From Thiolapillus brandeum (GTDB taxonomy: Bacteria; Pseudomonadota; Gammaproteobacteria; Chromatiales; Chromatiaceae), in the NCBI RefSeq assembly GCF_000828615.1, contig NZ_AP012273.1, forward strand, positions 310,001-374,000: 64,000 nt of DNA, written 5' to 3'. Both the position numbers and the translations under genes were made by a program. Below, piece after piece: positions 45,764 to 46,048 of this stretch (position 1 is the first letter of the stretch; the number at the start of each line of letters is the position of its first letter). Below the pieces are notes generated by a model. That model had not been told where the DNA came from, ran no database searches, and saw only the letters and a program-made list of their open reading frames with translations.

Positions 45764-46048
45764 TATTAACCCGGCGACCAAGTATGCCTGTTTCAGGACG
45801 CAGAGAAGGGCGCTGAACAAGGCGTGGCGCGCCGGCAATGGCCCAGTCCTTGGCAAGGGCCACAACGTAGTGCAGTGACCTTCTCTGCGTCCCTAACTTA
45901 TTGATGTTGTAACGAAAGGCCAAGCTGTGCTGCCCCACGGACAGCGTTGCCACCGCTTGCAGTAGGCGCGCTACAGCGGCGCGGCGGCGCCTTGCCGTGA
46001 AGCAGCACAGCTTGGCTGAACCAGACCTACTTGGTCGCCGGGTTAATA
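45764..46048. mobile_element. MITE-like hairpin element, 285 bp, with 21-bp terminal inverted repeats
   Basis: The ends are perfect inverted repeats of 21 bases: 45764-45784, beginning TATTAACCCGGCGACCAAG, and its complement at 46028-46048. The outermost TA on both sides is what a TA target duplication would look like. Inside, two further long inverted repeats form separate hairpins: GGACGCAGAGAAGG (45796-45809) with 45879-45892, and GCCAAGCTGTGCTGC (45919-45933) with 46002-46016. Imperfect pairing continues inward from the terminal repeats (CTGTTTCAG/CTGGTTCAG). No transposase is encoded; open frames across it look random. The layout fits a non-autonomous transposable element, perhaps mobilised by a TA-targeting transposase such as the IS630/Tc1 group, but a structured RNA cannot be excluded. 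Confidence 0.65.

What the first reader, a model, noticed from the sequence alone, without database searches (positions are those of the whole stretch)
45764..46048. Nested-hairpin MITE-like element with perfect 21-bp ends
A 285-bp block has perfect 21-base terminal inverted repeats, an outermost TA on each side as expected for TA target duplication, and two more long perfect internal inverted repeats (14 and 15 bp) arranged as separate arms. No transposase is present. The only accessory-looking DNA in an otherwise core region, it sits between the SAM hydrolase gene and the DUF4124-ntrBC unit, where it could supply or block transcription. The multi-arm architecture is unusual for a simple MITE.
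Basis: partly seen in the sequence, partly recalled or inferred. Interest (0 to 1): 0.6.

Follow-up and report, generated by a model that had tools for sequence, protein, structure and literature searches.

The report
Mobile element with conserved folded arms
This 285-base block is one copy of a small mobile DNA element that carries no enzyme of its own, and relatives of its two hairpin arms in many other bacteria keep the same shape and loop letters while the rest of the sequence changes, which suggests that the fold itself is useful.

Summary
The block has 33-nt inverted ends (outer 21 perfect), TA at both ends and two hairpin arms. It is mobile: 19 full-length copies (283-286 bp) in its genome, and none between the orthologous genes in 9 of 9 relatives that keep the gene pair. 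Ends of sister subfamilies resemble IS630-family ends in two genus genomes. Ends of more distant relatives match IS630- or IS5-family elements. No such transposase was found in the own genome.

The surprise is the interior: two ~105-nt arms joined head to head, with conserved loops (CAAGGC / GCAGGCAATGG / CCTTG.CAAG / AACRC). For 81 arms chosen by loop bases alone, 80% of outer-stem positions are Watson-Crick pairs, against 34% when arms are swapped. An arm model hits 116 of 369 sampled Gammaproteobacteria genomes. Rfam has no family for it and eight paper searches found no description.

Best reading: a new MITE variant, moved in trans, whose arms act as folded RNA or single-stranded DNA. The arm's partner and benefit are unproven. 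In passing: an IS110-family element abuts the MITE end in 4 of its 6 copies.

The parts
45764..46048 (.). whole element, 285 bp
   Evidence: 19 full-length copies of 283-286 bp in the own genome
45764..45796 (+). left inverted end (33 nt), TA outermost
   Evidence: the first 12 bases equal those of the IS630-family end in L215
46016..46048 (-). right inverted end (33 nt), TA outermost
45792..45896 (+). arm 1, sense strand, ~105 nt
   Evidence: covariance model match 95.4 bits at G000:C1:355792-355896 (the window is C1:310001-374000)
45915..46020 (-). arm 2, sense on the minus strand
   Evidence: covariance model match 62.7 bits at G000:C1:355915-356020
45818..45823 (+). conserved CAAGGC of arm 1 (its counterpart AAC starts at 45864)
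   Evidence: sequence; columns 27-32 and 74-76 of alignment A1
45989..45994 (-). conserved CAAGGC of arm 2
   Evidence: sequence
45897..45914 (.). linker between the arms; in many relatives outside the genus the arms abut around a short CCCnnnGGG
   Evidence: ORF list; orthologue found in relatives
   Evidence: ORF list and sequence; orthologue found in relatives

Best explanation
A non-autonomous MITE that inserts at TA. Its ends belong to the IS630 type (to the IS5 type in some distant relatives), and such a transposase would move it in trans. Between the ends lie two copies of one ~105-nt structured arm, head to head, so that either strand reads end, sense arm, antisense arm, end. The arm is kept by selection on its fold and loop bases and acts as a single-stranded fold recognised by some factor widespread in Gammaproteobacteria. 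I slightly favour a cis-acting RNA made by read-through from neighbouring genes over a DNA fold that helps transposition. Shown: copies, lineage-specific presence, IS-like ends in the family, conserved fold with covariation, head-to-head order. Inferred: movement in trans, TA duplication, RNA versus DNA, the factor and the benefit.
For: 19 full-length copies, nine of them 97-100% identical to the window copy. No copy between the orthologous genes in 9 of 9 relatives. The IS630-family end in L216 matches subfamily D in 25 of 30 positions and that in L215 in 22; the best of 60 shuffles of L216 was 20; both genes carry PF13358. The Parahaliea element's end matches both ends of an IS630-family element of Acidovorax; the Stutzerimonas-type end matches both ends of IS5-family elements of Azotobacter and Paracoccus. 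Fold: 28 of 31 pairs with two-sided changes in 25 preselected arms; in 81 arms chosen by loop bases only, 80.2% Watson-Crick pairs against 25-31% in six other registers and 34.2% for swapped arms. Head-to-head arms in 49 of 60 loci. Model matches in 116 of 369 Gammaproteobacteria genomes.
Against: The window's own subfamily A matches the IS630 ends in only 18 of 30 positions, which is chance level (shuffle mean 17.2); only the outer 12 bases agree fully with L215. The own genome has no PF13358 or DUF4096 hit, so its mover is unidentified. No left end was found for either genus IS630 gene. The end of the Microbulbifer element found no IS in plasmids. Short end matches have weak BLAST E-values. 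Against the RNA reading: in the wider loci, elements lie between co-directional genes less often (15 of 41) than element-free gaps do (68 of 105). The GT-over-AC bias is carried mostly by three positions.
Confidence: 0.55

Rival explanations
1. The arms act at the DNA level only: in single-stranded DNA (lagging strand or displaced strand) each end plus sense arm folds and helps excision, capture by the transposase, or priming of the complementary strand.
For: Each end has its arm in the same orientation relative to the end, as expected of subterminal transposon sites. The DNA fold is also far beyond chance. Derivatives with intact ends but shortened or missing arms were few in what I saw (the list is capped).
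Against: IS630-type transposition needs only the transposase and double-stranded ends in vitro (passages of PMC2170065). The arms are absent from the IS630 and IS5 loci examined.
Confidence: 0.3
2. Neutral interior: template switching at imperfect palindromes keeps correcting one stem strand to the other, so stems stay paired without selection on a fold.
For: Such correction is known for quasi-palindromes (recalled) and would give two-sided changes.
Against: It does not explain loop bases conserved across genera, unpaired internal loops kept open at a fixed register, constant arm length, or the inner T-G positions that stay unpaired in the Watson-Crick sense.
Confidence: 0.08
3. A REPIN-like system moved by a Y1 (RAYT) transposase that recognises the arms.
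For: Inverted pair of hairpins with loop conservation; Y1 matches in 11 of 15 genus genomes.
Against: G008 (99% complete) and G014 (84%) carry elements but show no Y1 match, while G002, G007 and G011 have Y1 matches but no element or end match. The ends are long TIRs of DDE type.
Confidence: 0.04

Closest known systems
MITEs derived from IS630 / Tc1-mariner elements (for example RUP, Correia/NEMIS; names recalled)
   Same: no gene, inverted ends, TA at the ends, multicopy, intergenic, related IS elsewhere
   Different: here the interior is a conserved paired structure across genera and the ends vary; in a usual MITE the ends define the family (recalled)
MITEPsy1 of Pseudomonas syringae (PMC3189936, passages)
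   Same: short gene-less element, ends like an IS5-family element (ISPsy2), inserts at CTAG or YTAA
   Different: 100 nt with 18-nt ends and a 4-nt duplication; sequence not compared here, so a relation is neither shown nor excluded
QMITE2 of Coxiella burnetii (PMC10969869, passages)
   Same: gene-less element whose transcript is predicted to fold strongly
   Different: direct repeats of 7-9 bp; the passages I saw give a single-sequence fold, no covariation
REPIN / BIME with RAYT (listing and recall)
   Same: two inverted hairpin units forming one non-autonomous element
   Different: units here are ~105 nt with long DDE-type ends; no co-occurrence with Y1 genes in the genus
Intergenic repeats R0-R200 of Pseudomonas fluorescens (PMC2718517, passages)
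   Same: MITE-like intergenic repeats, some with inverted repeats and near an IS
   Different: sequences not held, so no comparison; tail-to-tail bias reported there, my rough counts show none in the own genome (2 of 21)

Membership tests
MITE | short, without a gene, with terminal inverted repeats | tested here: met
MITE | multiple dispersed copies | tested here: met
   19 full-length copies
MITE | target duplication seen against an empty site | tested here: inconclusive
   TA at both ends of the copies; relatives have no element between the genes but flanks are too diverged for a base-level empty site; strict scripted TA in 18 of 47 other dimers, rough end calling
MITE | ends shared with an autonomous element | tested here: inconclusive
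   met for sister subfamily D (25 of 30 with L216) and for two distant families; subfamily A of the window only 18 of 30; no mover found in the own genome
IS630/Tc1-derived | insertion at TA, mobilised by a DDE_3 transposase | not testable with these tools
   needs a transposition assay; PF13358 genes with similar right ends exist in 2 of 15 genus genomes
Structured RNA family | secondary structure supported by compensatory changes | tested here: met
   (a folded single-stranded DNA would give the same signal)
Structured RNA family | transcribed and folded in cells | not testable with these tools
   no RNA-seq or probing data
Known Rfam family | match at or above a gathering score | tested here: not met
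REPIN/RAYT | Y1 transposase in genomes that hold the element | tested here: not met
   no Y1 match in G008 and G014, which hold elements; both are incomplete assemblies

The most novel reading that the evidence does not exclude
The arm is an unrecognised structured RNA of Gammaproteobacteria and some other Pseudomonadota, carried by MITEs with ends of at least two transposase families. Because the arms are head to head, a transcript from either side presents a sense arm first, so the element could act on RNA polymerase or on transcript processing in both directions and make its own insertions harmless: a mobile, direction-independent RNA insulator.
Probability: 0.25. Interest if true: 0.9.

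Novelty: new variant of a known kind. Interest (0 to 1): 0.72.

Why it matters
A MITE interior is usually thought to be free to decay. Here it is the conserved part, with a fold backed by extensive compensatory change across genera, while the ends vary and resemble those of two transposase families. That points to a function for the inside of a MITE, provides a covariance model that finds the family in about a third of sampled Gammaproteobacteria genomes, and makes the question of what the fold does directly testable.

Tried and rejected
Rejected or led nowhere: (1) Conserved single-copy RNA gene: multicopy and absent between the orthologous genes. (2) An autonomous element with arms at its ends: no such pair of TATTAACCCGGC ends found in the own genome; two facing arms 5 kb apart in G100:C76 have mirrored flanks and look like an assembly artefact. 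(3) Y1/RAYT and DUF4096 transposases as mover in the genus. (4) Phages: the Stutzerimonas-type element has no match. (5) Gene orientation, with home-made gene calls: own loci 14 co-directional, 2 convergent, 5 divergent (element-free gaps 4, 1, 8); other loci 15, 12, 14 (element-free gaps 68, 19, 18); the last comparison speaks mildly against easy tolerance inside operons. (6) Rfam. (7) Integron attC, considered because of CCTAAC in the linker, dropped by inspection only. (8) Empty site through a related plasmid: no usable record. (9) IS for the Microbulbifer-type end: none; of 14 records for the Parahaliea-type end, 2 have an annotated IS630 gene under the match, most others lie elsewhere.

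Rows dropped: one search kept 72 of 114 candidate arms (42 failed, partly a register problem). One search reduced these to 36, and I gave 25 of the 36, leaving out 11 that were shifted by a base or had an atypical middle; so A1 and model R1 are biased towards good pairing. One search repeats the test without a pairing criterion. One search covered 80 of the 119 stretches. The first version of the GT/AC count was replaced.

Papers: eight searches found no description of this family; only open PMC papers are held. Passages only were seen of PMC2718517, PMC4853749, PMC10969869, PMC3189936, PMC4465626 and PMC2170065; the other papers in listings only.

Full report
Observation. The 285-bp block is real: 33-nt inverted ends with the outer 21 perfect, TA at both outer ends, two internal inverted repeats. 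It folds far better than dinucleotide shuffles as RNA on either strand and as DNA on the + strand.

Copies. A DNA search of the own genome gives nine copies at 97-100% identity over the whole query. Seven more align over the whole query at 66-69%. Three more align in part (73, 72 and 67%) but are full length by their ends. That makes 19 copies of 283-286 bp. Two derivatives of 133 bp and one of 142 bp keep both ends. Among 55 genomes (own and relatives), 12 have a match: nine of the genus, own included, and three others. The exact end TATTAACCCGGC occurs in 12 of 15 genus genomes, own included, with no hit of the reversed control.

Site history. Both flanking genes are found side by side in nine relatives (loci L079-L087). 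In eight of the nine the gap between the aligned ends is 94-159 nt, too short for the element. In the ninth (L085) it is 340 nt, and the element profile finds nothing there, while it finds the element in two control loci. The window copy is thus specific to its lineage. The flanks are too diverged to read an empty site to the base.

Ends. Two of 15 genus genomes have an IS630-family gene (PF13358), each followed closely by an end of the same type. The L216 end matches the end of subfamily D in 25 of 30 positions and the L215 end in 22; the best of 60 shuffles of L216 reached 20, mean 17.2. Subfamily A, to which the window copy belongs, matches both in only 18 of 30, no better than chance beyond the outer bases. 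No left end was found for either gene. Outside the genus, the Parahaliea element's end agrees in 22 of 25 positions (my count) with one end of an IS630-family element of Acidovorax carolinensis that has an inverted partner about 1.1 kb away. The Stutzerimonas-type end matches both ends of an 861-bp IS5-family element of Azotobacter and an 842-bp one of Paracoccus; the Azotobacter protein has DUF4096 and DDE_Tnp_1, the Paracoccus one could not be scanned. These short matches have weak E-values; their weight comes from lying at IS ends. The Microbulbifer-type end found no IS. That this transposon type duplicates TA, and an IS630 preference for CTAG, rest on passages and a reference title in PMC2170065. 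The own genome shows no PF13358 or DUF4096 match, so what moved its nearly identical copies is unknown.

The arm. Copies of diverged subfamilies differ in the stems but keep the loops. An inner stretch of the query matched elements in other families whose ends are entirely different. Both halves of an element carry the motif, the second on the other strand. In 25 aligned arms, 28 of 31 pairs have two-sided changes, 93.8% of cells pair, and the covariation score is 0.910 against 0.200 in shuffles, none of 500 reaching it. Those rows had been preselected for pairing, so I repeated the test with arms chosen by loop bases only, in one fixed register. At under 90% identity, 81 arms have 80.2% Watson-Crick pairs in the 19-bp outer stem, against 25-31% in six other registers and 34.2% when the sides of different arms are combined. 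At under 70% identity, 33 arms have 75.8% against 32.6%, with a mean stem identity of 33% between arms. Unrelated stem sequences that pair at one exact register are strong evidence for a maintained fold.

Strand and molecule. In the 81 arms GT pairs outnumber AC mismatches 129 to 29 on the CAAGGC strand. Three inner positions carry most of this. Without them it is 60 to 26, and 23 to 15 in the 33-arm set, while the cross-arm background is about 1.4 to 1. I take it as a hint of single-strand folding that cannot tell RNA from DNA.

Architecture and spread. The arm model R1 gives 131 matches in the 80 stretches searched, 49 in the own genome, and matches in 116 of 369 Gammaproteobacteria genomes, 91 of 272 genera, at E up to 0.001. 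In a phylum sample 72 of 398 match at E up to 0.0001: 38 of the same class, own included, and 34 outside, 30 of these in one family. That this family is zetaproteobacterial is a guess. I inspected 20 matches from these samples and two lone arms of the own genome: 18 of 22 pass a simple test for the exact loop motifs, four do not and look like variants. Of 60 loci, 49 have two arms head to head, 35 of the 49 pairs with no gap, against one pair in the opposite order; 11 loci show no such pair. The median element length is about 270 with rough end calling.

Mechanism. The ends would be used by a transposase in trans (inferred). The arms are kept by selection on a fold with fixed loop bases (shown by covariation; the cause is inferred). 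Derivatives with intact ends but reduced arms were few in what I saw, which suggests that the arms help the element to spread or to be tolerated. The head-to-head order gives every transcript, whichever way it runs, a sense arm first; it equally suits a subterminal DNA part. In the wider loci, elements were found between co-directional genes less often than element-free gaps (15 of 41 against 68 of 105), which does not help the RNA-insulator reading. I keep a slight preference for RNA and say so as a preference.

A guest IS. Checking copies with a shared flank showed an IS110-family element (PF02371 and PF01548). Of its six copies in the own genome, four abut the outer base of a MITE end (TATCAACCCGG); a fifth abuts TATCAGCCCGG without a MITE, and the sixth junction was not read. 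It probably uses the MITE end as its target.

Known or new. Rfam has no match and eight searches of held papers found no description (listed in Tried and rejected). I file it as a new variant of MITE. The genus is probably Thiolapillus or near it, because a Thiolapillus brandeum record is among the core hits (L185); that is a guess.

Noticed in passing
own genome C1: 698371-699870, 778125-779623, 1184935-1186433, 2351145-2352643 (and 872105-873603, 1877329-1878827): Six copies of an IS110-family element; four abut the outer end of a MITE copy at the same base, a fifth a similar 11-mer without a MITE. It looks like a site-specific IS that homes to the MITE end.
   Followed up: partly
L264 (G000:C1:2491549-2491652) and L265 (G000:C1:1897684-1897788): Lone arms with the same core but other stems in the own genome; L264 lies in a ~158-bp inverted repeat with a different end, possibly a single-arm element.
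   Followed up: partly
L252, L253, L254, L263 (G014:C3, G008:C99, G012:C47, G014:C76): Perfect or near-perfect 31-37 bp palindromes made of the two MITE ends alone, apparently what is left after loss of both arms.
   Followed up: no
L217, 3001-3270: A copy of the Stutzerimonas-type element in a Pseudomonas aeruginosa plasmid fills the gap between two co-directional genes (CaiB/BaiF transferase and acyl-CoA dehydrogenase).
   Followed up: no
L258 (G100:C76): Two inverted elements 5 kb apart with mirrored flanks, probably a palindromic contig; their end also begins TATTAACCCG though the genome is of another family.
   Followed up: partly
L271, L276 and others: Arms in AT-rich genomes keep loop motifs with AT-rich stems, so the fold tolerates wide changes of base composition.
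   Followed up: no
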